DNA from: Candidatus Barnesiella excrementavium
Lineage (GTDB): Bacteria; Bacteroidota; Bacteroidia; Bacteroidales; Barnesiellaceae
Assembly (NCBI GenBank): GCA_019115485.1
Contig: DXDM01000022.1
Location: forward strand, 1 to 64,000
Direction of reading: 5' to 3'
Length of the DNA stretch: 64,000 nt
Part shown: piece by piece, positions 49,460 through 64,000 of the stretch
Layout: the number at the start of each line of letters is the position of its first letter
Position numbering within the stretch: position 1 is the stretch's first letter
Notes under the pieces: generated by a model
The model's input: only the letters and a program-made list of their open reading frames with translations
Told to the model about the DNA's origin: nothing
Databases searched by the model: none
Made by a program: the position numbers and the translations under genes

Positions 49460-50794
49460 CTAATTGAACAGTTTGTCTATTTTGTGCAGGGCCGTGTCGA
49501 GGCAGAATATCACGACGTGGTCGTTGGGTTGTATCCAGGTGTTACCGGTCACGATCATACCGTGGCCGTTGCGCACCAGACCGCCAATGGTCAGGTCCGA
49601 CGGGAGTTTCAGCTCCTTTACCGGAGCTTTGGTGATTTTCGAGTTCTCCTTGGCCACCAGCTCCATCACCTCGGCGTCCGACAGGGCCAGACACTTGGCG
49701 TTCGACGAGTCTTCGTCGAGCAGCAGCTGGAAAATGCGGCTGGCCGCCAGCAGTTTCTTATTGATGATGTTGCCGATGTTCAGCCGTTCGGCCGTAGAGA
49801 TGAATTGCAGATTCTCTACCTCGGCAATGGTCTTTTTCACTCCCAGCTCTTTGGCCGTTAGGCAGGCCAAGATGTTGGTCTCGGAGCTGTCGGTGAGGGC
49901 GATAAAGGCATCGACGTCGCGAATGCCCTCCTCTTTCAGCAGGTCGACGTTGCGGCCGTCGCCCTGGATAATAATCACGTCGCTCATGTACTCGGCCAAC
50001 TTGTAGCTCTTCTGCCGGTCACACTCGATGAGCTTGATGGTCATGTCGTCGGGGGCGTAGCTTGAAATGCGAATGGCGATGCGGCTTCCGCCCATAATCA
50101 TGATTTTGTGGATTTCAGCTTCGCTTTCGCCCGAGAGTTGCTGAATCTCCTGTATGTGGTTGGGTGTGGTGGTGAAGTAGGCGATGTCGCCCACCTTGAT
50201 TTCGTCGTTACCACGCGGTATGATGGTTTCGTGCAATCGCTTGATGGCCGCAATATGATATTGGCTGTCGGCCGTGGTGAGTTCGTAGAGTTTTTTGTTG
50301 AGTATCTTGGCATTTTCGTGTAGCTTGACGCTCAGCACGATGAGCTCGCCGTTGCACAGTTCGAACCAGTTGCGGGTCCAGGTGTGGCGCAGGGCGGTGA
50401 TAACCTCTTCGGCCGCCAGCTTCTCGGGGTAGATGAGTTCGTTTACCCCCAGCGAGTCGAAGAAACTTTTATTCTCGGGCAGCAGATATTCGTAGTTGTC
50501 GACCCGGGCCAAAGTCTTCTTGGCCCCCAGTTTCGAGGCCATGGTGCAAGCCATGATGTTACGCGTCTCGAAAGGCATGACGGCGATAAAGAGGTCGGCC
50601 TGGTGAACTTTGGCCTGTTCCAGTGTTTGGAAGGCGGTGGGGTTACCTACAACCGTCATAAGGTTGTAGTTGGCGTCGAGTTCCCTCAGCTTCTCTTCGT
50701 TGTTGTCAATCAGGATAATGTCCTGCTCTTCCCGGGAGAGTAGCTTGGCCAGGTGAGTTCCCACCTCTCCGGCGCCGGCGATGATGATTTTCAT
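49460..50794 (-). CDS. trkA: Trk potassium transport NAD-binding protein
   Basis: Two TrkA-N Rossmann domains (MKIIIAGAGEVGTHLAKLL; IMGGSRIAIRIS) and TrkA-C domains. Confidence 0.96.
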   Translation of the reverse strand: MKIIIAGAGEVGTHLAKLLSREEQDIILIDNNEEKLRELDANYNLMTVVGNPTAFQTLEQAKVHQADLFIAVMPFETRNIMACTMASKLGAKKTLARVDNYEYLLPENKSFFDSLGVNELIYPEKLAAEEVITALRHTWTRNWFELCNGELIVLSVKLHENAKILNKKLYELTTADSQYHIAAIKRLHETIIPRGNDEIKVGDIAYFTTTPNHIQEIQQLSGESEAEIHKIMIMGGSRIAIRISSYAPDDMTIKLIECDRQKSYKLAEYMSDVIIIQGDGRNVDLLKEEGIRDVDAFIALTDSSETNILACLTAKELGVKKTIAEVENLQFISTAERLNIGNIINKKLLAASRIFQLLLDEDSSNAKCLALSDAEVMELVAKENSKITKAPVKELKLPSDLTIGGLVRNGHGMIVTGNTWIQPNDHVVIFCLDTALHKIDKLFN

Positions 50795-50825
50795 AATTAA
50801 TAATTAATACCCTTATACTTTTGTT

Positions 50826-52730
50826 TTACCAATTCCCCGTGAAGGTTGCATAAATACTCTCTTCGTCGATGCCGCACAGCCGATGTAGCTCTTTGACCGA
50901 GCCCTGGGCAATGAAGCGGTCGGGGATTCCCAGCCGTTTGATGCGCGGGGTGTAGCCGTTGTCGGCCATAAATTCCAACACGGCGCTTCCGAATCCGCCG
51001 GTGATGCAGCCATCTTCGAGGGTGATGATTCTTTTGTATTTCTTTCCTACCTGGTGCAGTATCTCTTCGTCGAGCGGCTTGACAAATATCATGTCGTAGA
51101 GAGCCGCTTGTGTACCAGCCTCCCGGGCCCGTTGTACGGCATGCAGGGCATCGACTCCGACGGGTCCGATGCTGAGCACGGCCAGGTCGTCGCCTTCGCA
51201 AAGTTGCCGTCCCTTGCCGATGGGAATCTCGTGCATGGGGCATCGCCAGTCGACCTGGCTGCCGCTTCCCCGCGGATAGCGTATGGCAAAGGGTCCGTTG
51301 TTGCGTAGTTGGGCCGTGTACATGAGGTGTCGCAAGGTGTGCTCGTCCATGGGGGCGGCGATGGTCATGTGGGGAATGCTGCGCAGGTAGCAGATGTCGA
51401 ATACCCCGTGGTGGGTCACACCGTCTTCGCCCACCAGTCCGGCCCGGTCGATGCAGAAGGTCACGGGCAGATTCTGTATGGCCACGTCGTGTATCACCTC
51501 GTCGAAGGCTCTTTGCAGGAAGGTCGAGTAGATGCTGCAAAAGGGTTGCAGCCCCTCTTTGGCCAGCCCGGCGGCAAAGGTGACGGCATGCTCTTCGGAG
51601 ATGCCCACGTCGAACGACCGGTGCGGGAACCGCTCCATCATGAAGCACGACGAACTGCCTGTGGGCATGGCCGGTGTGATGACCATAATCTTTTCGTTCT
51701 TCTCGGCCAGTTCGACCAGCGTATGGCCGAAGACGTCCTGAAACTTGGGAGGTTTGTTACCCTCGGGTTCGCTCTTGCGTTCGCCGGTAGCGGGGTTGAA
51801 GCAGCCGGGAGCGTGCCAGATGGTGGGCTCTTTCTCGGCCGGCGCATACCCTTTGCCCTTGATGGTGCGCAGGTGCAGTATCTTGGGCCCCGTCATCTCT
51901 TTGATGTCGTTCAGTTTGTTGACGATGTTGATGACGTTGTGCCCGTCGATGGGGCCGAAGTAGCGTATGTCGAGCCCCTCGAATATGTTCTGCTGCTTGG
52001 TGAGCAGCGCTTTCAGGCTGTTGTTGAAACGCAGTATGGCACCCCGGTGCTCCTCGTCGATGAGGTTGAAGCGTCGCAGGGTGCGATAGGCGTCGTAGCG
52101 CAGTTTGTTGTATCCGCGCGAGGTGGTGATGTTGACCAGATATTCGTTAAGCCCGCCCACGTTATGGTCGATGGCCATATCGTTGTCGTTGAGAATGATG
52201 AGCAGGTTGTTGGGGTTGGTCGAGGCGTTGTTCAATCCCTCGAAGGCCAGTCCGCCCGCGATGGAGGCGTCACCGATGACGGCAATCACTTTGCGCTCTT
52301 TCTTTTCGTGTTTGAGCTGTGTGGCGATGGCCATGCCCAAAGCGGCCGATATGGAGTTGGAGGCGTGTCCGGCGATGAAGGCGTCGTATTCGCTCTCGGC
52401 CGGGTTGGGGAATCCGCTCAGTCCGTTCAGTTTGCGAATGGTGTCGAACTGTTCGCGGCGACCGGTGAGTATCTTGTGCCCGTAGGCCTGGTGCCCTACG
52501 TCCCACACGATGCGGTCGTAGGGGGTGTCGAACACGTAGTGCAGGGCCACGGTCAACTCGACGGCACCCATGCTCGACCCGAAATGTCCCGGGTTGTGGG
52601 CCAGCGAGTCGATGAGGAAGCGGCGTATCTCGGCACACACCTCGGGCAGTTTCTCGACCGGCAGTTTGCGCAGGTCGGCTGGGAAGTTTATCTGTTTGAG
52701 TAGTTCTATATTTTCGGGTTCCATTGTCAC
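50826..52730 (-). CDS. dxs: 1-deoxy-D-xylulose-5-phosphate synthase
   Basis: [81 protein letters not shown]. Confidence 0.97.
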
Positions 52731-52752
52731 AGCTTTTTATCGGCTCGACGGC

Positions 52753-52932
52753 TCATTTGCCTTTGCTTTCTTGTTTCCATCGTTTATAGAGGGGGACGAA
52801 TACAATGATTCCCGAAGCAATCAGGGCAAACACCACTTGCCCGTCAAGGCCTCTCGCCCAAATCAATGTCACGGCACAAAAAAGCCAGAGCAGTGCGATA
52901 CACGAAATGCGGAACACATTATATTTTCTCAT
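52753..52932 (-). CDS. Small predicted membrane protein (59 aa)
   Basis: Below the ORF-track threshold; read directly as MRKYNVFRISCIALLWLFCAVTLIWARGLDGQVVFALIASGIIVFVPLYKRWKQESKGK with two hydrophobic segments. Confidence 0.6.
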   Translation of the reverse strand: MRKYNVFRISCIALLWLFCAVTLIWARGLDGQVVFALIASGIIVFVPLYKRWKQESKGK

Positions 52933-53126
52933 ATCAAATTTCTGATTTTTCGATGTATTGACATCGACCTCCTAAGTCAACCTACAAATATAGATATTCT
53001 TTTGCAAGAAAAGAAAATAATATACCAAAATCACGGGATAAATAAAAATGGCGAACAGGTAAATATAAGAAAATCAGTGTGCTATTGAAACCTGTCCAAT
53101 CGAAGGTCCGATGGGGGGAGAAGAGA

Positions 53127-53163
53127 CAAAGATAGCGTGCCGCACGGAGGTGGCACGCTATCT
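53127..53163 (-). terminator. Hairpin/terminator at the end of the aromatic amino-acid operon
   Basis: GATAGCGTGCC ... GGCACGCTATC inverted repeat downstream of tyrA, followed by TTTG on the minus strand. Confidence 0.6.
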
Positions 53164-53202
53164 CGATGGGTTTGTCTGGAAAGCGGTTGTAGCCGATAGT
53201 GC

Positions 53203-53976
53203 TCACTCGATATTTTTCCGCACCCGGGTGAGGTATGCTTTCATGCGGTCGGTGTCCTTGTGTTCGATGATATCGAGCAGTGCCGACATCTGCTCTTGTA
53301 TCTGCCTCACCTGCTGGGGAGTGTTGGGGTTGAAGAGTATCTCGGTGAGCAGGTAGTCGTCTTCCGAGAGCAGCCCGCGGGCTATTTCCAGGTGCTTTTT
53401 GAAGGTGGTTCCCGGGGCCTCCTGGTGTTTCATGATCGAGGCGAATACCAGGGTCGAGGTGAAGGGTATCGAAAGGGAGTAGGCGATGGTCTCGTCGTGC
53501 TCGCGGAAGGAGTATTCGAATATGTTGAGCCGCAGGCGCTGGTAGATGTCCTTGAAGAAGACTTTACCCAGGTGGTCGCCCTCGGTAATGATGATGACGT
53601 GTTGCGTGCTCAGGTCGCTGAGGTTGGCAAAGGTGGGCCCGAACATGGGGTGGGTCGATACGAAGGGGTGACCCGCCCGGGCATAGAATTCGGGCAGACC
53701 GGTCTTGACCGAGGCGATGTCCGACAGGATAGTACGGTCGGGCAGGTAGGGGAGTACCGACTCGAAGGCCTCGATGGTGTATTTGACCGTGGCGGCGTTG
53801 ATGACCAGGTCGGGGGCAAACTCGCCTATCTCTTCGGGGCGGGTCATGCGCAGGGTGTTGAAGGCAAACCGCAGCCGGTTGGGGTCTACGTCGTAGAGGG
53901 CGACTTCGTGGTCGAAACTGAGTACGTCGGCAAAAAACGACCCCATCTTGCCGGCGCCGAGAATCACTATTTTCAT
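53203..53976 (-). CDS. tyrA: Prephenate dehydrogenase
   Basis: MKIVILGAGKMGSFFADVLS Rossmann motif; SDIASVKTGLPEFYARAGHPFVSTHPMFGPTFANLSDL. Confidence 0.93.
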   Translation of the reverse strand: MKIVILGAGKMGSFFADVLSFDHEVALYDVDPNRLRFAFNTLRMTRPEEIGEFAPDLVINAATVKYTIEAFESVLPYLPDRTILSDIASVKTGLPEFYARAGHPFVSTHPMFGPTFANLSDLSTQHVIIITEGDHLGKVFFKDIYQRLRLNIFEYSFREHDETIAYSLSIPFTSTLVFASIMKHQEAPGTTFKKHLEIARGLLSEDDYLLTEILFNPNTPQQVRQIQEQMSALLDIIEHKDTDRMKAYLTRVRKNIE

Positions 53977-54004
53977 AGGGCAATGCGATGACTGGGTGAA
54001 ACGG

Positions 54005-55069
54005 TTATTGGTTGATAATCTCCATCTGCTGGTGTACCGACTCCTCGTGAATGGCCTGCATCACCTCTTTCATGAACTCGGCTCCCATGCCCAGCTCCAC
54101 GGCCTGGGCCATACGCTTTTGCAGAATCTCGTCGTAACGCGAGGTCTGCAACACGGGCATGCTGTGCTCCTTCTTGTATTGGCCTATCTCGCGCGACACG
54201 CGCATGCGCTTGGCCAGCAGTTCGAGCAGCTGGTTGTCGAGCTGGTCTATCTGGTGGCGCAGCTCCGAGAGGTTTTCAGTTGTTTGGGTTGTTTCGCGGA
54301 TTACCAGCATGTTGAGTATATAGGAGAGCGCTTCGGGGGTCACCTGCTGGTTCTTGTCGCTCCATGCACAGTCGGGGTCACAGTGCGACTCGACGATGAG
54401 TCCGTCGAAACCCATGTCCATCGCCTGCTGGCAGAGCGGAGCTACCAGCTCGCGCTTGCCTCCGATGTGGCTGGGGTCGCAGACGATGGGCAGGTTGGGC
54501 AGTCGTCGGCGCAGCTCGATGGGGATATGCCACTGAGGCATGTTGCGGTAGAGGTGTTTGTCGTAGCTGCTGAACCCGCGGTGGATTACACCCAGCCGGC
54601 GCAGGCCGGCGTTGTAGATGCGCTCGACAGCCCCGATCCAAAGTTCCAGGTCAGGATTCACGGGGTTCTTGATCAGTACGGGGATGTCCACTCCCTTTAA
54701 TGCGTCGGCAATCTCCTGTACGGCGAAGGGGTTGGCTGTGGTGCGGGCACCTATCCACAAGATGTCGATGCCGTGTTTGAGGGCTTCGAACACGTGACGC
54801 TCGGTAGCCACCTCGGTGGCGGTGTACATGCCGGTCTCCTCTTTCACCCGTTTGAGCCAGGCCAGTCCCTCCACGCCTACGCCTTCGAAACCTCCCGGTT
54901 TGGTACGGGGTTTCCATATCCCGGCGCGGAATATCTTGATACCTTGCCCGGCCAGTTGGCGGGCGGTGTTCATGACCTGTTCTTCGGTCTCGGCGCTGCA
55001 AGGGCCGGCTATGATAAGGGGGCGTTTGCGGTCGACCCCGGGCAGTAAAATCGGTTGTAAATCTTTCAT
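54005..55069 (-). CDS. Bifunctional DAHP synthase / chorismate mutase
   Basis: RPLIIAGPCSAETEEQVMNTARQLAGQGIKIFRAGIWKPRTKPGGFEGVG (DAHPS) plus C-terminal chorismate mutase helices (LSELRHQIDQLDNQLLELLAKRMRVSREIGQYKKEH). Confidence 0.96.
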   Translation of the reverse strand: MKDLQPILLPGVDRKRPLIIAGPCSAETEEQVMNTARQLAGQGIKIFRAGIWKPRTKPGGFEGVGVEGLAWLKRVKEETGMYTATEVATERHVFEALKHGIDILWIGARTTANPFAVQEIADALKGVDIPVLIKNPVNPDLELWIGAVERIYNAGLRRLGVIHRGFSSYDKHLYRNMPQWHIPIELRRRLPNLPIVCDPSHIGGKRELVAPLCQQAMDMGFDGLIVESHCDPDCAWSDKNQQVTPEALSYILNMLVIRETTQTTENLSELRHQIDQLDNQLLELLAKRMRVSREIGQYKKEHSMPVLQTSRYDEILQKRMAQAVELGMGAEFMKEVMQAIHEESVHQQMEIINQ

Positions 55070-55085
55070 GACGGTATATAAGTTT

Positions 55086-56273
55086 TTAGAGTTTTACGGA
55101 TTGGATTCGTTGCAAGGCTTCGTTCATTCGCTCCTCGGTGGCGCAGAGCGAGATGCGCAGGTAGCGGTTGCCGCGGCTGCCGAAGATGAATCCCGGGGTG
55201 ACAAAGACGCGGGCTTCGTGGAGTATCCGGTCGGCCAGCGATTCGGCATCGGGTGCCGTGTCGGGGATTCGGCCCCAGACGAACAGCCCCACCTGCGACG
55301 GGTCGTAGTGGCAGTCGAGTGCCTGCATGATTTGCTCGGCTATCTGTCGGCGGGTGCGGTAGACGCGGTTCACCTCGTCGTACCATTCGGGGCCGCACGA
55401 GAGGGCCTTGATGGCGGCACTCTGCAACGGGCGGAACATGCCCGAGTCGATGTTGCTCTTTACCCGCAGTATCCACTCGACGAACCGGGGGTTGGAGGCC
55501 AGCATGCCGATGCGCCAGCCGGCCATGTTGTGCGACTTGCTCAGCGAGTTCATCTCGATGCAGCACTCCCGGGCGCCCGGTACCGACAGCAGGCTGAGGG
55601 GTCGGTCGTTGAGGATAAAGCTGTATGGATTGTCGTTGACGATGACGATGCCGTGACGCCGGCCGAACTCCACCAGCCGGGTGAACAGCTCGGTCGAGGC
55701 GTTGGTTCCGGTGGGCATGTTGGGGTAGTTGACCCACATGAGTTTGATGCGGTCGAGCGGCATCGATTCGAGTTGGTCGAAGTCGGGTTGCCACCCGTTT
55801 GCCTCGTCGAGGTCGTAGGTGAAAATCTCGGCTTCGGCCAGTCGGCTTACCGAACTGTAAGTGGGGTAGCCGGGATTGGGCACCAGTACTCCGTCGCCGG
55901 GATTGAGGAAGGCAAGGCTGATGTGCAGGATTCCCTCTTTCGACCCGATGAGGGGTTGTATCTCCCGTTGCGGGTCGAGCTCTACGCCATACCAGCGGGC
56001 ATACCAGTCGGCAAACGCCCGGCGCAATTCGGGAATACCCACATAGGGTTGGTAGCTGTGCGTGTCGGAGCGTCGGCTTTCGGCACACAAAGTCTCGATA
56101 GTCTCGGCATGAGGGGGCCGGTCGGGGCCGCCAATACCCAGGCTGATGATGTCGAGTCCGCGGGCATTCAGCGCGGCAATTTCTTTCAACTTGCGTGAGA
56201 AGTAGTATTCGCTCACGCTGTTCACCCGGTTGGCGGGACGTATGGTATCAAAGGGGTTGGTTGAATTCTGCAT
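55086..56273 (-). CDS. PLP-dependent class I/II aminotransferase
   Basis: LGIGGPDRPPHAETI, VPNPGYPTYSS, WVNYPNMPTGTNAS, NSLSKSHNMAGWRIGM; start overlaps the end of pheA by 26 nt. Confidence 0.95.
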   Translation of the reverse strand: MQNSTNPFDTIRPANRVNSVSEYYFSRKLKEIAALNARGLDIISLGIGGPDRPPHAETIETLCAESRRSDTHSYQPYVGIPELRRAFADWYARWYGVELDPQREIQPLIGSKEGILHISLAFLNPGDGVLVPNPGYPTYSSVSRLAEAEIFTYDLDEANGWQPDFDQLESMPLDRIKLMWVNYPNMPTGTNASTELFTRLVEFGRRHGIVIVNDNPYSFILNDRPLSLLSVPGARECCIEMNSLSKSHNMAGWRIGMLASNPRFVEWILRVKSNIDSGMFRPLQSAAIKALSCGPEWYDEVNRVYRTRRQIAEQIMQALDCHYDPSQVGLFVWGRIPDTAPDAESLADRILHEARVFVTPGFIFGSRGNRYLRISLCATEERMNEALQRIQSVKL

Positions 56274-57093
56274 ATTCTCCGAGTATTTTGAAGTTCTTGG
56301 TCAGAGGTCGTATGGCTTCGAGCGACTGTTTGTAACGGGTGAAGTTGTCGAAGGTGAGGTCGATGTAGAAGCGATATTCCCATTCCCGTCCGATGATGGG
56401 CATCGATTGAATCTTCGACAGGTTGATGTCGTAGAAGGAGAGTATCGTGAGCACCTTTGACAGGCTGCCCTGCGTGTGGGGCAGGCTGAATACCAGCGAC
56501 GACTTGTTGATGCGTTTGCCGGCGGTGAGCAGGTCGCTGTAAAGCGGGTCGGCCACGATAAGAAACCGGGTGAAGTTGCGCTTGTTGGTCTCGATGCCCT
56601 CGGCCAGAATGTCCAGTCCGTAAATCTCGGCCGCCAGTCGGCCGCAGATGGCGGCATGCCCTTCGAGTCGTTGTTGGGCTATCTCCTGTGCGCTACCCGC
56701 CGTGTCGTCCTTCTCTACGAGTTTCATGCGGGGGTGAGCTTTGAGAAATTCGCCGCACTGCATCAGGGCCATGGGGTGGGAGTTTACCTCGCGAATGTCG
56801 TCGAGCTCCTCGCCCGGCAGGGCGGCAAGCACGTGCGAGATGCGCAGTTTGTATTCCCCTACGACGTTCAGATTGCTTTTGCGCAGCAGTTCGTGGTTTT
56901 GCAGCAGGCTGCCGGCGATGGTGTTCTCGATGGCCATGATGCCCAGCAGGGAACGGTCGGAGGCCATGCGGTCGAACATCTCGGGAAAGGTGGTGCAGGC
57001 GACGGTCTCAATCTCCTCCTCGCCGAAGTAGGCTCGGGCGGCGGCTTCGTGATAACAACCGGCTATGCCTTGTATGGTAACTCGTTTCTTCAT
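56248..57093 (-). CDS. pheA: Prephenate dehydratase (monofunctional, with ACT domain)
   Basis: RVTIQGIAGCYHEAAARAYF, GIMAIENTIAGSLLQNHELL, ACT domain VFSLPHTQGSLSKVLTILSFYDINLSKIQSMP. Confidence 0.96.
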   Translation of the reverse strand: MKKRVTIQGIAGCYHEAAARAYFGEEEIETVACTTFPEMFDRMASDRSLLGIMAIENTIAGSLLQNHELLRKSNLNVVGEYKLRISHVLAALPGEELDDIREVNSHPMALMQCGEFLKAHPRMKLVEKDDTAGSAQEIAQQRLEGHAAICGRLAAEIYGLDILAEGIETNKRNFTRFLIVADPLYSDLLTAGKRINKSSLVFSLPHTQGSLSKVLTILSFYDINLSKIQSMPIIGREWEYRFYIDLTFDNFTRYKQSLEAIRPLTKNFKILGEYAEFNQPL

Positions 57094-57100
57094 AGGTCGA

Positions 57101-57138
57101 AAATAAAAAATCCCGTTCGTGCAATGAACGGGATTTTA
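57101..57138 (-). terminator. Attenuator terminator upstream of pheA
   Basis: Minus strand AAAATCCCGTTC-attgcac-GAACGGGATTTTTTATTTT, ending just before the pheA ATG (57093). Confidence 0.93.
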
Positions 57139-57195
57139 CTGAATATGTGTTATTGTCTTGTTTTACATCATGTTTATTTGCATAAAACCCCGTTC
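57126..57195 (-). promoter_or_regulatory. Antiterminator pairing segments of the Phe/Tyr attenuator
   Basis: GAACGGGGTTTTA (57183-57195) can pair with TAAAATCCCGTTC (57126-57138): 13 bp with one G-U, mutually exclusive with the terminator. Confidence 0.85.
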
Positions 57196-57255
57196 TTATT
57201 TTGGTCCAAAATAAAAATAAAAGTAAAAGTAATATGCAAAATCAAAATTCTTCAT
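57196..57255 (-). CDS. Phe/Tyr leader peptide MKNFDFAYYFYFYFYFGPK (19 aa)
   Basis: ATG AAG AAT TTT GAT TTT GCA TAT TAC TTT TAC TTT TAT TTT TAT TTT GGA CCA AAA TAA: 6 Phe and 5 Tyr in 19 codons, directly upstream of the antiterminator segment. Confidence 0.92.
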   Translation of the reverse strand: MKNFDFAYYFYFYFYFGPK

Positions 57256-57282
57256 TGTTTCTCTGTGGTGAGTTTTATGTTG

Positions 57283-57313
57283 CAAATGTAATGAAATCAT
57301 TTTTTAATCCAAA
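57283..57313 (-). promoter_or_regulatory. Promoter of the leader-pheA operon
   Basis: Minus strand TTTG (57310-57313) - N19 - TACATTTG (57283-57290), consensus Bacteroidetes promoter. Confidence 0.85.
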
Positions 57314-57452
57314 CAAATCGTTATAAATTTTTGAATAAAACGACAATTTTTTTATTTTTATTGCAGGTGATGTGTACATTGTGCTTGTGAATGGTGTAGA
57401 GCCGGGTGGAAAAATTGACGAACGGGAGAGGACGAACCCCGCATTTTTTCAC

Positions 57453-57460
57453 TACCTTTG
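57453..57460 (+). promoter_or_regulatory. Candidate -7 box for the hypothetical gene at 57484
   Basis: TACCTTTG 24 nt upstream of the ATG. Confidence 0.5.
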
Positions 57461-57483
57461 TAATCATAATAATGGAATAAGTT

Positions 57484-57945
57484 ATGGAAGCTTCGGAACA
57501 AAAACTTTTCTCTGCCCTGTGCGAGACCCTGTGTGTAGCCGTAGAAAAGGCTCGTGCAGAGTCCATGTCGTTGACCGACCTGTATGTACAGGTGAAGTAT
57601 GACGACCAGCAGTTTGTCGTCTACGACGATGCCGACGGGGTGTTGGCTCAGGCAACCGTCGAGGCACTCGACGAGTGGCGCACGGCTCACGAAGGCGAGT
57701 CGTCGGAGAGTGCGCTGATTGCCTTGTTGAGAAAGGTGTTGGAGCATGACGACGTGAACCGGGCTCTTCACTCGCTGGATTTCATATCGCCCTTCTCGGT
57801 CGTATTGGTGAATGCCGACATGGAACCGGTGGCCGACCTCGTTACCCTCGACGACGAGAATGTCTATCTGCACGACGATTTCTGGGAGAAGATGGACAAG
57901 GAGCTCGACGATTTCTTTGAGCAACTCATGGCCGATACCAAGTGA
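57484..57945 (+). CDS. Conserved-looking acidic protein of unknown function (153 aa)
   Basis: MEASEQKLFSALCETLCVAVEKARAES...; own -7 box; no family recognised. Confidence 0.7.
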   Translation: MEASEQKLFSALCETLCVAVEKARAESMSLTDLYVQVKYDDQQFVVYDDADGVLAQATVEALDEWRTAHEGESSESALIALLRKVLEHDDVNRALHSLDFISPFSVVLVNADMEPVADLVTLDDENVYLHDDFWEKMDKELDDFFEQLMADTK

Positions 57946-58035
57946 CGCCAGTCGCAGGAAGCGAATCAGCTCTCTCTTTGGACGGCCTGGAATGTGTTGC
58001 CGACCGGCCGCTCACAAGAAAAATTTTAATAATAA

Positions 58036-58066
58036 TTTGATTATCGAAAGATAAGCACTAATTTTG
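58036..58066 (+). promoter_or_regulatory. Promoter for tig
   Basis: TTTG (58036-58039) - N19 - TAATTTTG (58059-58066). Confidence 0.75.
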
Positions 58067-58148
58067 CGCTCTCAAAATTTGCACGCTTTTTGCAGGGAAT
58101 AGAGAGTAAATAAGTAAAAACATAAATAATTTAATAAAATATATAAGA

Positions 58149-59510
58149 ATGAACGTTTCACATCAAAACACCGACAACCTGAACGCCGTGATTTCGATTG
58201 AAATAACGAAAGCCGATTATCAGGACAAAGTTGATAAATCTCTTCGCGCTTACGGGCAGAAAGCCAATATCCCCGGTTTCAGAAAGGGGAAAGTACCGTT
58301 CAGCATCCTCACGAAGATGTTTGGAAAATCGGTTCGGGTAGAAGAGATAAACCGTTTGGTTTCAGAAGCTCTGTACAATTATATCCGCGACAACAAACTC
58401 AATATCCTGGGCGAGCCGATGACGGCCGAAGATATGACGGTCGACCTCGATGCACAGGACGATTTCACCTTCCGTTTTGATGTAGCTTTGGCTCCCGAAC
58501 TGGACGTGAAAGTCGACAAAAAGATAAAAGTTCCCTACTACACGATTACCGTTGACGACGACATGGTAAAACGTCAGAACGAAGCTTTCCTGTCGCGCTT
58601 TGGCAAACAGGTTTCGGTCGACGAGTCGACCGACGAGCGTGACCTCATCAAGGGGTCGATGGTCGAGCTCGCAAGCGACGGCACGCCCCTCGAAGGCGGC
58701 ATCACGGTAGAGAGCACGATTGTTTCGCCCAACTACTTCAAGAGTGACGACGAGAAGGCCAAATTCGCCGGCGTGAAGAAGGGCGACAAGGTGGTGTTCA
58801 ATCCCTCGAAGAGCTGCAACGCATCGGTAGCCGAACTTGCTTCGATGCTCAATACCGACAAGGAGAAAGCTGCCAATGTGACATCTGACTTTGAGATGAC
58901 AGTGACAGATATTACTCATCTGCAACCGGCCGAGTTGAACCAGGAGTTGTTCGACAACGTATTTGGCAAAGATGCCGTAAAAAACGAAGAGGAGTATTTC
59001 GCCAAATTGCGTGAGATGATTGCCCGTCAGCTGGTTCCCGAGAGCGACTACAAGTTCTCGATTGACTCCCGCGCAGCCATCGAAAAAGCCGTAGGCGATT
59101 TCGAGTTGCCCGACGCATTCCTCAAACGCTGGTTGCTGGCTACCGACAAGGAGCGTAAGGCCGAGACCATCGACGACGATTACTCTCGCATGGTGCCCGA
59201 CTTGAAATGGCAGTTGATTAAGGAGCAAATTGTAAAACAGTTCGATATCCACGTCGACGACAACGACTTGAAGGCTTTGGCCAAACGGGTCGCTGCCAGC
59301 CAGTTCGCCCAATACGGTATGACCGGTGTGCCCGACGATGTACTCGAACGTTACGGCAACGAGATGCTGTCGAGCAAGGAGACCCGTTCGCGCCTCATCA
59401 ACCAGGCTACCGAGCAAAAGATTCAAACCGCTATCAAGGAGTCGGTAACCCTCAATCACAAAGAGGTATCGATGGAAAAATTCCAGAAACTGTTTGAAAC
59501 AGCCGAATAA
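58149..59510 (+). CDS. tig: Trigger factor
   Basis: N-terminal ribosome-binding domain with IPGFRKGKVPFSILTKMFGKSVRVEEINRLVSEAL; upstream of clpP-clpX. Confidence 0.94.
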   Translation: MNVSHQNTDNLNAVISIEITKADYQDKVDKSLRAYGQKANIPGFRKGKVPFSILTKMFGKSVRVEEINRLVSEALYNYIRDNKLNILGEPMTAEDMTVDLDAQDDFTFRFDVALAPELDVKVDKKIKVPYYTITVDDDMVKRQNEAFLSRFGKQVSVDESTDERDLIKGSMVELASDGTPLEGGITVESTIVSPNYFKSDDEKAKFAGVKKGDKVVFNPSKSCNASVAELASMLNTDKEKAANVTSDFEMTVTDITHLQPAELNQELFDNVFGKDAVKNEEEYFAKLREMIARQLVPESDYKFSIDSRAAIEKAVGDFELPDAFLKRWLLATDKERKAETIDDDYSRMVPDLKWQLIKEQIVKQFDIHVDDNDLKALAKRVAASQFAQYGMTGVPDDVLERYGNEMLSSKETRSRLINQATEQKIQTAIKESVTLNHKEVSMEKFQKLFETAE

Positions 59511-59537
59511 AAAAGAGCAGGATATAAACCCTCTCAG

Positions 59538-59571
59538 AAGCCCCGGAACCTCTCGTTTTCGGGGCTTTTTG
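59538..59571 (+). terminator. Terminator after tig
   Basis: AAGCCCCG ... CGGGGCTTTTTG. Confidence 0.85.
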
Positions 59572-59677
59572 TCACGGTGTGCTCCGGCCCGGCCCAGCCG
59601 GTGGGCGAGGGGCTGTTCGCGATATATTATTTTTTGTGAAAGATAAGGATAAAAAAGTAGACCGCCTCCCGATTTTA

Positions 59678-59710
59678 TTTGGGGCATAACTGTTTTTATT
59701 TATATCTTTG
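59678..59710 (+). promoter_or_regulatory. Promoter for clpP-clpX
   Basis: TTTG (59678-59681) - N21 - TATCTTTG (59703-59710). Confidence 0.7.
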
Positions 59711-59749
59711 ACTGAAAATAGGGATTGAAAACAATTAAAAAAGAAGTAT

Positions 59750-60430
59750 ATGATGACAAACGATTTTAGAAATTATGCGGTAAAGCATTTAGGAATGAAT
59801 GGCCTTGCGCTGGATCAGTATGCACAGATTACCAGCAGCTACCTCTCTCCCACGATTATGGAAGAGCGTCAACTGAATGTGACACAGATGGACGTATTTT
59901 CACGTCTGATGATGGACCGTATAATCTTTTTAGGAACGCCTATCGACGATTATACGGCCAATGTCATAGAGGCTCAGTTGCTCTATCTCGACTCGGCCGA
60001 CCCCGGTAAAGACATCTCTATCTATTTCAACACCCCGGGCGGGTCGGTCTACGCCGGTCTGGGCATCTACGACACCATGCAGTTCATCAGCTGCGACGTG
60101 TCGACCATCTGTACCGGTATGGCCGCCTCGATGGGTGCCGTGCTGCTGGTAGCCGGTACCAAGGGCAAACGCTTCGCACTGAAACATTCGCGGGTAATGA
60201 TTCACCAGCCGATGGGCGGCGCTCAGGGCCAGGCTTCCGATATCGAGATTACGGCTCGGGAGATACAGAAATTGAAGAAAGAACTCTATACGATTATCGC
60301 CGACCACTCGGGAAATCCCTACGAGCGGGTAGAGAAAGACTCCGACCGCGACTACTGGATGACCGCCGCCGAAGCCAAGGAGTATGGCATGATTGACGAA
60401 GTGTTGGTGAAATCACAGAAAACCATTTAA
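59750..60430 (+). CDS. clpP: ATP-dependent Clp protease proteolytic subunit
   Basis: [53 protein letters not shown]. Confidence 0.97.
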
Positions 60431-60433
60431 ATC

Positions 60434-61663
60434 ATGGCGAAAAGCGAAAAATGTAGTTTCTGCGGACGAGGGGCGAACGAGGTGAGGCTCTTGATGCCGG
60501 GCCGCGACGGCTGTATCTGCGACGAGTGTGCCGAACAGGCCTACCTCCTCTCCGAAGAGTATCTGCACAAGAAGAGAAAAAAGAATTCCAAGTGGGCCAT
60601 CTCCCGGGAGGAGTTGCCCAAGCCCGACCAGATAAAGGCCTTCCTCGACGAGTATGTCATCGGGCAGGACGATGCCAAGCGCTACCTGGCCGTATCGGTC
60701 TACAACCACTACAAACGCATCATGCAGGCCGCCGATGACAGTGACGACGTGGAGATCGAAAAGTCGAACATTATCATGGTAGGTCCTACGGGTACCGGCA
60801 AAACCTTGCTGGCCAAGACAATAGCCCGTTTGCTCAAAGTGCCCTTCACCATTGTCGACGCCACCGTGCTCACCGAGGCCGGCTATGTGGGCGAGGATAT
60901 CGAGAGCATTCTCACCCGCCTGCTCCAAGTGGCCGACTATGACGTCGAGGCTGCTGAGCGCGGCATCGTGTTTATCGACGAAATCGACAAGATAGCCCGC
61001 AAGAGCGACAACCCCTCGATTACCCGCGACGTGAGCGGAGAGGGGGTGCAGCAGGGATTGTTGAAACTGCTCGAAGGCTCGATTGTGAACGTACCGCCCC
61101 AAGGTGGTCGCAAGCACCCCGAACAGAAGATGATTGCGGTGAACACCAAGAACATACTCTACATCTGCGGCGGAGCCTTCGACGGCATCGAGCGCAAGAT
61201 AGCCATGCGGCTCAACACCCATGTGGTAGGGTATAACGGTGGTGGCAGCAACAGCAGGGTCGACCGCGACAATCTGTTGCAATACATCGCTCCGCAAGAC
61301 TTGAAGGCCTATGGGCTTATCCCCGAAATCATCGGCCGTCTGCCCATACTCACCTACTTGCAACCCCTCGACCGGGAGGCGTTGCGCCGTATTCTGGTCG
61401 AACCCAAGAACTCGATTATCAAACAGTATGTCAAACTGTTCGAGATGGACGGTGTGAAGCTCACCTTCGACGACGACATGCTCGACTATGTGGTCGACAA
61501 GGCTATCGAGTTCAAACTGGGAGCTCGTGGGTTGCGTTCGATTGTCGAGACGGTGATGATGGACGCCATGTACGAAACCCCTTCGTCGAACAAGAAAAAA
61601 CTGCATATCACACGCAGCTATGCAGAAAAGAAATTGGAGAAAGCAAAACTATTGGCCGTATAA
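60434..61663 (+). CDS. clpX: ATP-dependent Clp protease ATP-binding subunit
   Basis: Zn-binding [11 protein letters not shown]...[46 protein letters not shown]. Confidence 0.97.
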
Positions 61664-61762
61664 AAAACAGCAGGAAAAAATTTGGTAATTACGCAGAGTT
61701 GTTTATAAATTTGTTAGACCGATAAGAGTTTCGGCCAAACAATAACGAGAAAGAGATACCGT

Positions 61763-63943
61763 ATGGCAAAAGAAGTAAATTTGACTGAGGAACTGAAAAA
61801 GAATTTCGGATTCGATACCTTCAAAGGAAATCAGGAAGCGATTATCAAGAATTTACTCGCCGGGAAAGACACCTTTGTATTGATGCCTACCGGAGGAGGT
61901 AAGTCGCTTTGTTATCAACTACCGTCTCTGATTCTTGACGGGACGGCCGTCGTGATTTCTCCCTTGATTGCATTGATGAAGAATCAGGTCGATGCCATGC
62001 GGAATTTCAGTGCCGAAGACGGTGTGGCTCACTTTATAAACTCATCGCTCAACAAGGCTGCCATCGATCAGGTGAAGAGCGATATCCTGTCGGGAAAAAC
62101 CAAATTGCTGTATGTAGCGCCCGAGTCGTTGACCAAGGAAGAGAATATCGACTTCCTGCGTCAGGTAAACATCTCGTTCTATGCCGTGGACGAGGCGCAC
62201 TGTATCTCGGAGTGGGGACACGATTTCCGCCCCGAGTATCGTCGCATACGCCCCATCATCAACGAGATAGGGGTAAGACCGGTCATCGCCCTCACGGCGA
62301 CCGCCACCCCCAAGGTGCAGCACGATATCCAGAAAAACCTGGGCATGCTCGACGCCACGGTCTTCAAGTCGTCGTTCAACCGTCCCAACCTCTACTACGA
62401 GGTGCGCCCCAAAACGGCGAATATCGACAAGGACATCATCAAATACATCAAGTCGCAGGAGGGCAAGTCGGGTATCATCTATTGCCTCAGCCGCAAGAAG
62501 GTGGAAGAGCTGGCCGAACTGTTGCAGGTCAACGGCATACGGGCATTGCCCTACCATGCCGGCATGGACTCGGCCACCCGCACACAGAACCAGGACGCAT
62601 TCCTGCTCGAGAAAATCGATGTCATTGTAGCCACGATAGCCTTTGGCATGGGAATCGACAAACCCGATGTGCGCTACGTCATACACTACGACATACCCAA
62701 GAGTCTCGAAGGCTATTACCAGGAGACGGGACGTGCCGGACGGGACGGCGGAGAAGGTCAATGTATAACTTTTTATATCAATAAAGATTTGCAGAAACTC
62801 GAAAAGTTCATGCAAGGGAAACCCATTGCCGAGCAGGAAATCGGGAAGCAGTTGCTGCTCGAGACGGCGGCCTATGCCGAGTCGTCGCTCTGCCGGCGCA
62901 AGATTCTGCTGCACTACTTTGGCGAGGAGTATGAAGAAGATAATTGTGGAAATTGCGATAATTGCCTAAATCCTAAGAAACAAGTGGAAGCAAAAGATCA
63001 ACTTTGTGCGGTTCTTGAAACTATCATTGCACTGAAAGAGAAATTTAAAGCCGAATATGTGATCGATGTCCTGATGGGCAAGGAGACCAGTCAGGTCCTT
63101 TCCTATCAGCACGAAGATCTCGAAGTCTTCGGTAGCGGACAGGGCGAAGACGAGCGCACGTGGAACGCCGTGATTCGCCAGGCATTGATTGCCGGCTATA
63201 TCGATAAGGATATTGAAAACTACGGATTGTTGAAGGTGACCAAAGCCGGGCACGCATTCCTGAAAAATCCGGTATCGTTCAAGATTGTGAAGGACGTAGA
63301 TTTTGAGGAGATGGAAGAAGAGGTGCCCATGAAGGGTGGAGCCGCCTGTGCCGTCGACCCCGAACTGTATGCCATACTCAAAGACCTCCGCAAGAAGATA
63401 GCCAAGCGGCTCGAACTGCCGCCCTACGTCATCTTCCAGGACCCGTCGCTCGAAGCCATGGCCACCACCTATCCCATTACCCTCGAAGAGTTGCAGAATA
63501 TCCCGGGAGTGGGAGCCGGCAAAGCCAAACGCTACGGCGAGGAGTTTATCAAGGTCATCAAGGCACATGTCGAGGAGAATGAAATCGAGCGTCCCGAAGA
63601 TTTGCGGGTGCGCACGGTAGCCAACAAGTCGAAGTTGAAAGTCTCGATAATCCAGGCCATCGACCGCAAGATAGCCCTTGACGAACTGGCCGAATCGAAA
63701 GGGCTGGAATTCGGCGAACTGCTCGACGAAATTGAAGCCATCGTCTACTCGGGTACGAAGATAAACATCGACTATTTCCTGCGCGAGATTATGGACGACG
63801 AGCACATCGACGACATCTTCAACTACTTCAAGGAGAGCGAGAGCGACAGCCTCGAAGATGCCATCGAAGAGTTCGGCATGGAATACAGCGAGGAGGAGAT
63901 ACGGTTGATTCGCATCAAGTTCCTCTCCGAGATGGGCAACTAA
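61763..63943 (+). CDS. recQ: ATP-dependent DNA helicase RecQ
   Basis: MPTGGGKSLCYQLP, DEAHCISEWGHDFRPEYRRI, QETGRAGRDGGEGQCI, Zn-binding Cys cluster CGNCDNC, HRDC domain. Confidence 0.96.
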   Translation: MAKEVNLTEELKKNFGFDTFKGNQEAIIKNLLAGKDTFVLMPTGGGKSLCYQLPSLILDGTAVVISPLIALMKNQVDAMRNFSAEDGVAHFINSSLNKAAIDQVKSDILSGKTKLLYVAPESLTKEENIDFLRQVNISFYAVDEAHCISEWGHDFRPEYRRIRPIINEIGVRPVIALTATATPKVQHDIQKNLGMLDATVFKSSFNRPNLYYEVRPKTANIDKDIIKYIKSQEGKSGIIYCLSRKKVEELAELLQVNGIRALPYHAGMDSATRTQNQDAFLLEKIDVIVATIAFGMGIDKPDVRYVIHYDIPKSLEGYYQETGRAGRDGGEGQCITFYINKDLQKLEKFMQGKPIAEQEIGKQLLLETAAYAESSLCRRKILLHYFGEEYEEDNCGNCDNCLNPKKQVEAKDQLCAVLETIIALKEKFKAEYVIDVLMGKETSQVLSYQHEDLEVFGSGQGEDERTWNAVIRQALIAGYIDKDIENYGLLKVTKAGHAFLKNPVSFKIVKDVDFEEMEEEVPMKGGAACAVDPELYAILKDLRKKIAKRLELPPYVIFQDPSLEAMATTYPITLEELQNIPGVGAGKAKRYGEEFIKVIKAHVEENEIERPEDLRVRTVANKSKLKVSIIQAIDRKIALDELAESKGLEFGELLDEIEAIVYSGTKINIDYFLREIMDDEHIDDIFNYFKESESDSLEDAIEEFGMEYSEEEIRLIRIKFLSEMGN

Positions 63944-63965
63944 ATAAGCATACAGATACCCGATA

Positions 63966-64000
63966 GGGTGGGGCTATCCGCAAGCGGGTGGCCCCACTTT
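63966..64000 (+). terminator. Terminator after recQ (cut by window edge)
   Basis: GTGGGGC ... GCCCCACTTT inverted repeat. Confidence 0.6.

What the first reader, a model, noticed from the sequence alone, without database searches (positions are those of the whole stretch)
57094..57313. Complete Phe/Tyr ribosome-mediated transcription attenuator controlling a Bacteroidales aromatic amino-acid operon
All parts of a classical attenuator are visible on the minus strand and in the right order. (1) Consensus promoter TTTG-N19-TACATTTG. (2) A 19-codon leader ORF, MKNFDFAYYFYFYFYFGPK, with 11 of 19 residues Phe or Tyr. (3) Directly after its stop codon, GAACGGGGTTTTA. (4) TAAAATCCCGTTC, which pairs with segment 3 over 13 bp as an antiterminator. 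(5) GAACGGGATTTTTT, which instead pairs with segment 4 as an intrinsic terminator, 8 nt before the pheA ATG. Stalling at Phe/Tyr codons would leave segment 3 free to pair with segment 4. A ribosome at the stop codon would cover segment 3 and allow termination. The operon is pheA - aminotransferase - DAHPS/chorismate mutase - tyrA, so one leader alternating Phe and Tyr would sense both end products. The classical pheA leaders known from enterobacteria are Phe-rich; a mixed Phe/Tyr leader driving all four genes in Bacteroidetes looks little described or undescribed. The leader falls below the ORF-track size cutoff.
Basis: partly seen in the sequence, partly recalled or inferred. Interest (0 to 1): 0.95.

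Follow-up and report, generated by a model that had tools for sequence, protein, structure and literature searches.

The report
Phe/Tyr-sensing transcription attenuator before pheA
A short Phe/Tyr-rich reading frame, followed by two competing RNA hairpins, very probably lets gut Bacteroidota of the genus Barnesiella switch on their phenylalanine/tyrosine synthesis genes only when these amino acids run short; the same device, sometimes doubled, sits before pheA across the class Bacteroidia.

Summary
On the minus strand a Bacteroidota promoter, the 19-codon leader MKNFDFAYYFYFYFYFGPK, an antiterminator pairing and an overlapping intrinsic terminator lie in order before pheA. The organism is a Barnesiella species. 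In 208 distinct pheA upstreams, 179 carry a short ORF with at least 7 F/Y in 12 codons, against 1 of 208 on the opposite strand and 1 of 1,040 shuffles. Both Phe and Tyr recur in 226 of 234 units found. Segments 3, 4 and 5 covary, and aromatic codons end about 12 nt before segment 3. The device extends to other orders of Bacteroidia. This strongly supports ribosome-mediated attenuation; no starvation response was measured.

There is no conserved 1:2 protector hairpin. An RNAP-pause-like G-10/Y-1/G+1 signature follows segment 3. At least 24 relatives carry two complete attenuators in series behind one promoter. His- and branched-chain-rich leaders before hisG and ilvD suggest a general Bacteroidales strategy.

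Known kind, new variant: leader attenuation is classical. A 2021 Flavobacterium paper flagged a structured element before pheA and leader-peptide clues before amino-acid operons. A 2010 comparative survey could not be read here.

The parts
57310..57313 (-). -33 promoter element TTTG
   Evidence: -7 box with a TTTG at the usual spacing in 80 of the 161 loci with a -7 box
57283..57290 (-). -7 promoter element TACATTTG (TAnnTTTG)
   Evidence: TAnnTTTG 10-60 nt before the leader ATG in 161/209 loci vs 9.6 expected from shuffles and 2/209 in a control region after the leader
57196..57255 (-). Leader ORF MKNFDFAYYFYFYFYFGPK* (regulatory Phe/Tyr codons within 57246-57208)
   Evidence: conserved class-wide
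57183..57195 (-). Segment 3: 5' arm of the antiterminator, GAACGGGGTTTTA
57181..57192 (-). Putative elemental RNAP pause site: G-10 = 57191, Y-1 = T57182, G+1 = 57181 (TATG overlapping the end of segment 3)
   Evidence: G...YG at exactly distance 10 in 47 of 71 non-redundant units vs 22 expected, z 7.1; RG and YA controls show no peak
57126..57138 (-). Segment 4: TAAAATCCCGTTC, shared by antiterminator (with 3) and terminator (with 5)
57105..57118 (-). Segment 5: GAACGGGATTTTTT, 3' arm and U-tract of the intrinsic terminator
56248..57093 (-). pheA, prephenate dehydratase (PF00800)
55086..56273 (-). class I/II aminotransferase (PF00155)
54005..55069 (-). DAHP synthase fused to chorismate mutase (PF00793 + PF01817)
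53203..53976 (-). tyrA-like prephenate dehydrogenase (PF02153, weak but above cut-off)

Best explanation
This is a ribosome-mediated transcription attenuator of the three-segment type, sensing charged tRNA-Phe and tRNA-Tyr. Transcription starts about 20 nt before the leader ATG (inferred from the promoter). A ribosome follows RNA polymerase on the leader. If Phe- or Tyr-tRNA is short it stalls in the aromatic run; its leading edge then leaves segment 3 free, 3 pairs with 4, the terminator cannot form and the four-gene operon is read. If both are plentiful the ribosome reaches the stop codon, covers segment 3, and 4 pairs with 5, stopping transcription before pheA. No conserved protector hairpin exists, so an untranslated leader should by default give the antiterminator and readthrough, unlike E. 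coli trp. A pause-like site just after segment 3 probably holds the polymerase, with segment 3 still inside it, until the leading ribosome arrives. Shown: sequence parts, conservation, covariation, spacing, promoter. Inferred: stalling, masking, pausing, termination.
For: F/Y leader in 179/208 distinct pheA upstreams vs 1/208 reverse strand. Leader-plus-terminator units in 171/207 Bacteroidales-set and 39/64 wider-set upstreams vs 2/207 and 0/64 on the reverse strand. Codons TTT 904, TTC 277, TAT 536, TAC 342 but TTG only 7: third positions vary while the amino acids hold, so the peptide is selected, not T-richness. Own 3:4 pairing stronger than pairing with another locus's segment 4 (median 22 vs 15). 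Triples 3-4-5 keep pairing as G-C-G, C-G-C, T-A-T, A-T-A. Aromatic run ends a median 12 nt before segment 3, IQR 10-14, near the ~10 nt a ribosome covers past its A site (established knowledge). Promoter before the leader in 161/209. Fold z -4.19. Operon makes Phe and Tyr.
Against: No expression, term-seq or starvation data exist here; the mechanism is read from comparative sequence. MFE folding cannot decide kinetic competition: with the first 10 nt after the last Phe codon removed, the predicted fold still contains the terminator, so the antiterminator must win co-transcriptionally. 36/207 upstreams of the Bacteroidales set gave no unit, from contig cuts, changed gene order or loss, not sorted out. 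The loci are related, so raw counts overstate independent events; the pause and triple tests used only loops sharing no 9-mer.
Confidence: 0.92

Rival explanations
1. The short ORF encodes a functional aromatic-rich microprotein (for example a membrane peptide) and the terminator merely ends its own transcript.
For: The peptide is conserved at amino-acid level.
Against: Only the F/Y run, its distance to segment 3 and the alternative pairings are conserved; N- and C-termini vary freely and the ORF may stop before or run through segment 3. Antiterminator pairing covaries, which a microprotein gene would not need. His- and branched-chain-rich leaders precede hisG and ilvD.
Confidence: 0.03
2. The leader acts mainly by translational coupling or reinitiation, with the hairpins affecting pheA translation rather than termination.
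For: The terminator ends 11 nt before the ATG in the window; reinitiation at leader genes has been proposed for Bacteroidetes (PMC4833913).
Against: The second hairpin has an intrinsic-terminator U-tract, and in some relatives it lies well upstream of pheA (for example L021). Tandem loci have a complete terminator far upstream of pheA.
Confidence: 0.04
3. A side question: the TATG-rich motif after segment 3 is a reinitiation start codon or part of an extended antiterminator helix, not an RNA polymerase pause. The attenuator itself would stand.
For: 33 of 78 G-10/YG sites end in ATG; a weak extra pairing of this part with the bases before segment 4 is seen (p 0.03).
Against: The ORFs it would open are of arbitrary length (1-62 codons), GTG, TTG and NCG also occur, and the enrichment peaks at exactly G-10 to G+1. 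It holds whether or not the leader ORF reads through.
Confidence: 0.35

Closest known systems
Enterobacterial pheA (pheL) and trp leader attenuators (Rfam Phe_leader, Trp_leader)
   Same: Promoter, short leader ORF rich in codons of the end product, mutually exclusive antiterminator and terminator before the first gene.
   Different: Leader alternates Phe and Tyr rather than Phe alone (E. coli from memory); no conserved 1:2 protector hairpin; no Rfam family matches; operon also holds DAHP synthase and tyrA.
Structured 5' elements upstream of pheA and hisG in Flavobacterium psychrophilum and other Flavobacteriaceae (PMC9723704)
   Same: Same phylum, same gene, no Rfam match, leader-peptide attenuation suggested upstream of amino-acid operons.
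   Different: The passages read give no Phe/Tyr code, three-segment anatomy, pause signal, tandem units or order-wide distribution; its supplement could not be read.
Simple actinobacterial trp and leuS attenuators (PMC1262725)
   Same: Candidate attenuators with leader, antiterminator and terminator in complementary triples.
   Different: Different phylum and amino acids; that survey found none for Phe or Tyr operons.
Tandem attenuators of Salmonella mgtCBR (PMC3641672)
   Same: Two leader-ORF attenuators in series on one transcript.
   Different: There the two units read different signals (ATP, proline); the tandem pheA leaders found in relatives here read the same Phe/Tyr signal twice.

Membership tests
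Ribosome-mediated (leader-peptide) transcription attenuator | Short leader ORF rich in codons for the operon's end product | tested here: met
   11/19 Phe/Tyr; 179/208 vs 1/208 reverse strand
Ribosome-mediated (leader-peptide) transcription attenuator | Intrinsic terminator between leader ORF and first gene | tested here: met
   (sequence only; termination not measured)
Ribosome-mediated (leader-peptide) transcription attenuator | Alternative antiterminator sharing the terminator's 5' arm, with covariation | tested here: met
   median 8 shared nt
Ribosome-mediated (leader-peptide) transcription attenuator | Spacing such that a ribosome stalled on regulatory codons frees, and one at the stop covers, segment 3 | tested here: met
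   median 12 nt, IQR 10-14; in the window a ribosome at the stop would cover about the first 10 nt of segment 3 (footprint from established knowledge)
Ribosome-mediated (leader-peptide) transcription attenuator | Promoter upstream of the leader | tested here: met
   161/209 with TAnnTTTG, 9.6 expected
Ribosome-mediated (leader-peptide) transcription attenuator | Readthrough rises when the cognate charged tRNA falls | not testable with these tools
   needs experiment
Enterobacterial four-segment layout (1:2 protector/pause hairpin) | Conserved leader:segment-3 (1:2) pairing | tested here: not met
   12 vs 11 for swapped partners, p 0.055; as strong as 3:4 in 1/60 units. The window has a weak A/U hairpin at the leader end
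Rfam Phe_leader or any Rfam 15 family | Match to the covariance model | tested here: not met
   no match up to E 1 in window 50000-64000; no gathering-level leader match in nine relatives

The most novel reading that the evidence does not exclude
Bacteroidota run a distinct, ancestral, class-wide attenuation architecture: a dual Phe/Tyr leader, no protector hairpin, an embedded consensus polymerase pause after segment 3 that synchronises ribosome and polymerase, and repeated evolution or retention of two same-signal attenuators in series to steepen the response. This would imply close transcription-translation coupling in a phylum that mostly lacks Shine-Dalgarno sequences.
Probability: 0.55. 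Interest if true: 0.75.

Novelty: new variant of a known kind. Interest (0 to 1): 0.6.

Why it matters
It gives a clean, testable case of ribosome-controlled transcription termination in a dominant gut phylum where such control is barely described. Stalling-dependent readthrough only works if the first ribosome stays close to the polymerase, so the element can serve as a direct reporter of transcription-translation coupling in Bacteroidota. One leader reading two amino acids, and serial same-signal attenuators, are unusual regulatory logic.

Tried and rejected
Rfam search of the window neighbourhood and nine relatives: no leader family. T-rich composition as an artefact: rejected by shuffles, reverse strand and near-absence of TTG. 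A conserved 1:2 protector hairpin: not found. Reinitiation ORF after segment 3: arbitrary lengths. trpE by family PF04715: no match in the two Barnesiella genomes, and no convincing Trp leader in the 660 nt examined for the other three. Key earlier survey (Lopatovskaya 2010) is not held. No covariance model was built: segment sequences turn over too fast for a plain alignment, so an in-register triple count and a partner-swap test were used instead.

Full report
OBSERVATION. The only correction is that segment 5 ends 11 nt, not 8, before the ATG. The leader RNA folds significantly (z -4.19), and antiterminator and terminator are of similar stability alone (-18.1 and -16.2 kcal/mol). The genes behind it are prephenate dehydratase, a class I/II aminotransferase, DAHP synthase-chorismate mutase and a prephenate dehydrogenase. 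The nearest named genomes are Barnesiella.

CONSERVATION. pheA upstream regions were collected from relatives. Of 208 distinct ones, 179 have a short ORF with at least 7 Phe/Tyr in a 12-codon window, against 1 on the opposite strand and 1 in 1,040 dinucleotide shuffles. A stricter search for leader plus terminator finds units in 171/207 of this set, with 2/207 on the reverse strand. In a phylum-wide sample, most loci from other orders of the same class carry F/Y(W) leaders and so do a few placed outside the class, while most distant members of the phylum do not. The device is therefore probably ancestral to the class; no tree was built.

THE PEPTIDE IS SELECTED. In the aromatic windows the codons are TTT 904, TTC 277, TAT 536, TAC 342, TTG 7. 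Third positions vary while Phe and Tyr are kept. Of 234 units 226 have at least two of each, so mixed Phe/Tyr sensing is the rule; 45 Trp residues also occur in these windows.

THE SWITCH IS SELECTED. Segment 3 pairs better with its own segment 4 than with another locus's (median score 22 vs 15). Bases of segment 4 that pair in both states (median 8) occur as G-C-G, C-G-C, T-A-T and A-T-A triples. The aromatic run ends a median 12 nt before segment 3 (IQR 10-14), which fits the roughly 10 nt covered past the ribosomal A site (established knowledge). The leader stop may lie before or after segment 3; either way an unstalled ribosome would cover it. A TAnnTTTG promoter precedes the leader in 161/209 loci (9.6 expected), a median 25 nt before its ATG, compatible with the 23-nt 5' UTR commonest in B. 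thetaiotaomicron (PMC7366714).

HOW IT DIFFERS FROM THE TEXTBOOK. Leader:segment-3 pairing is not better than swapped partners (p 0.055) and rivals 3:4 in only 1 of 60 units, so no protector hairpin is conserved. Directly after segment 3 there is an excess of TATG (25/71 non-redundant units vs 6.7 expected). More tellingly, pairs G...YG peak at exactly the G-10/G+1 distance of the consensus elemental pause (47 vs 22, z 7.1), with no peak for RG or YA. In the window this is G57191, T57182, G57181. A polymerase paused there would still hold segment 3 (inference). That this consensus applies to Bacteroidota polymerase is assumed from other bacteria.

TANDEM UNITS. At least 24 relatives have two complete leader-plus-terminator units in series, for example L111, L115, L162, L186, L197 and L221; L114 and L117 also show two leaders. 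No TAnnTTTG lies between the units in 23 of 23 tested, so one transcript should pass both. The window has one unit. The known tandem case, mgtCBR, reads two different signals (PMC3641672).

OTHER OPERONS. hisG is preceded by His-rich leaders in all five genomes examined, including the window's (L334, MLFLSLHHHHLHIPYGGVR), and branched-chain-rich leaders precede ilvD; terminator-like hairpins follow them (read by eye).

PRIOR ART. PMC9723704 reports for F. psychrophilum structured 5' elements upstream of pheA and hisG conserved in other Flavobacteriaceae and leader-peptide attenuation clues. PMC7366714 mentions sORFs reminiscent of leader peptides. Lopatovskaya et al. 2010 surveyed attenuation across bacteria but is not held, so absolute novelty cannot be claimed.

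VERDICT. A genuine ribosome-mediated attenuator (0.92), a new variant of a known kind. Stalling, masking, pausing and termination remain to be shown by experiment.

Noticed in passing
L111, L112, L114, L115, L117, L119, L131, L162, L186, L197, L221, L223-L225, L227, L232 and others: Two complete Phe/Tyr attenuators in series before pheA, with no promoter box between them; at least 24 loci.
   Followed up: partly
L334 (own genome G000 contig C6), L331-L333, L335: His-rich leader peptides followed by terminator-like hairpins upstream of hisG in all five Bacteroidales genomes examined.
   Followed up: partly
L339 (own genome G000 contig C18), L340-L343: Ile/Val/Leu-rich leaders upstream of ilvD with a shared TATGTAGTT-like stretch before the terminator in several.
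   Followed up: no
Leaders of L173, L199, L218, L238, L254 and others: Trp codons mixed into the Phe/Tyr leader (45 units), perhaps sensing all three aromatic amino acids, since the window's operon holds DAHP synthase.
   Followed up: no
L120, L121, L122 (genomes G362, G144, G303, one genus): pheA match reported with one in-frame TAG in three species of one genus; these also gave no clear leader.
   Followed up: no
G000 and G001: No Anth_synt_I_N (PF04715) match in either Barnesiella genome, suggesting absence of trpE and Trp auxotrophy.
   Followed up: no
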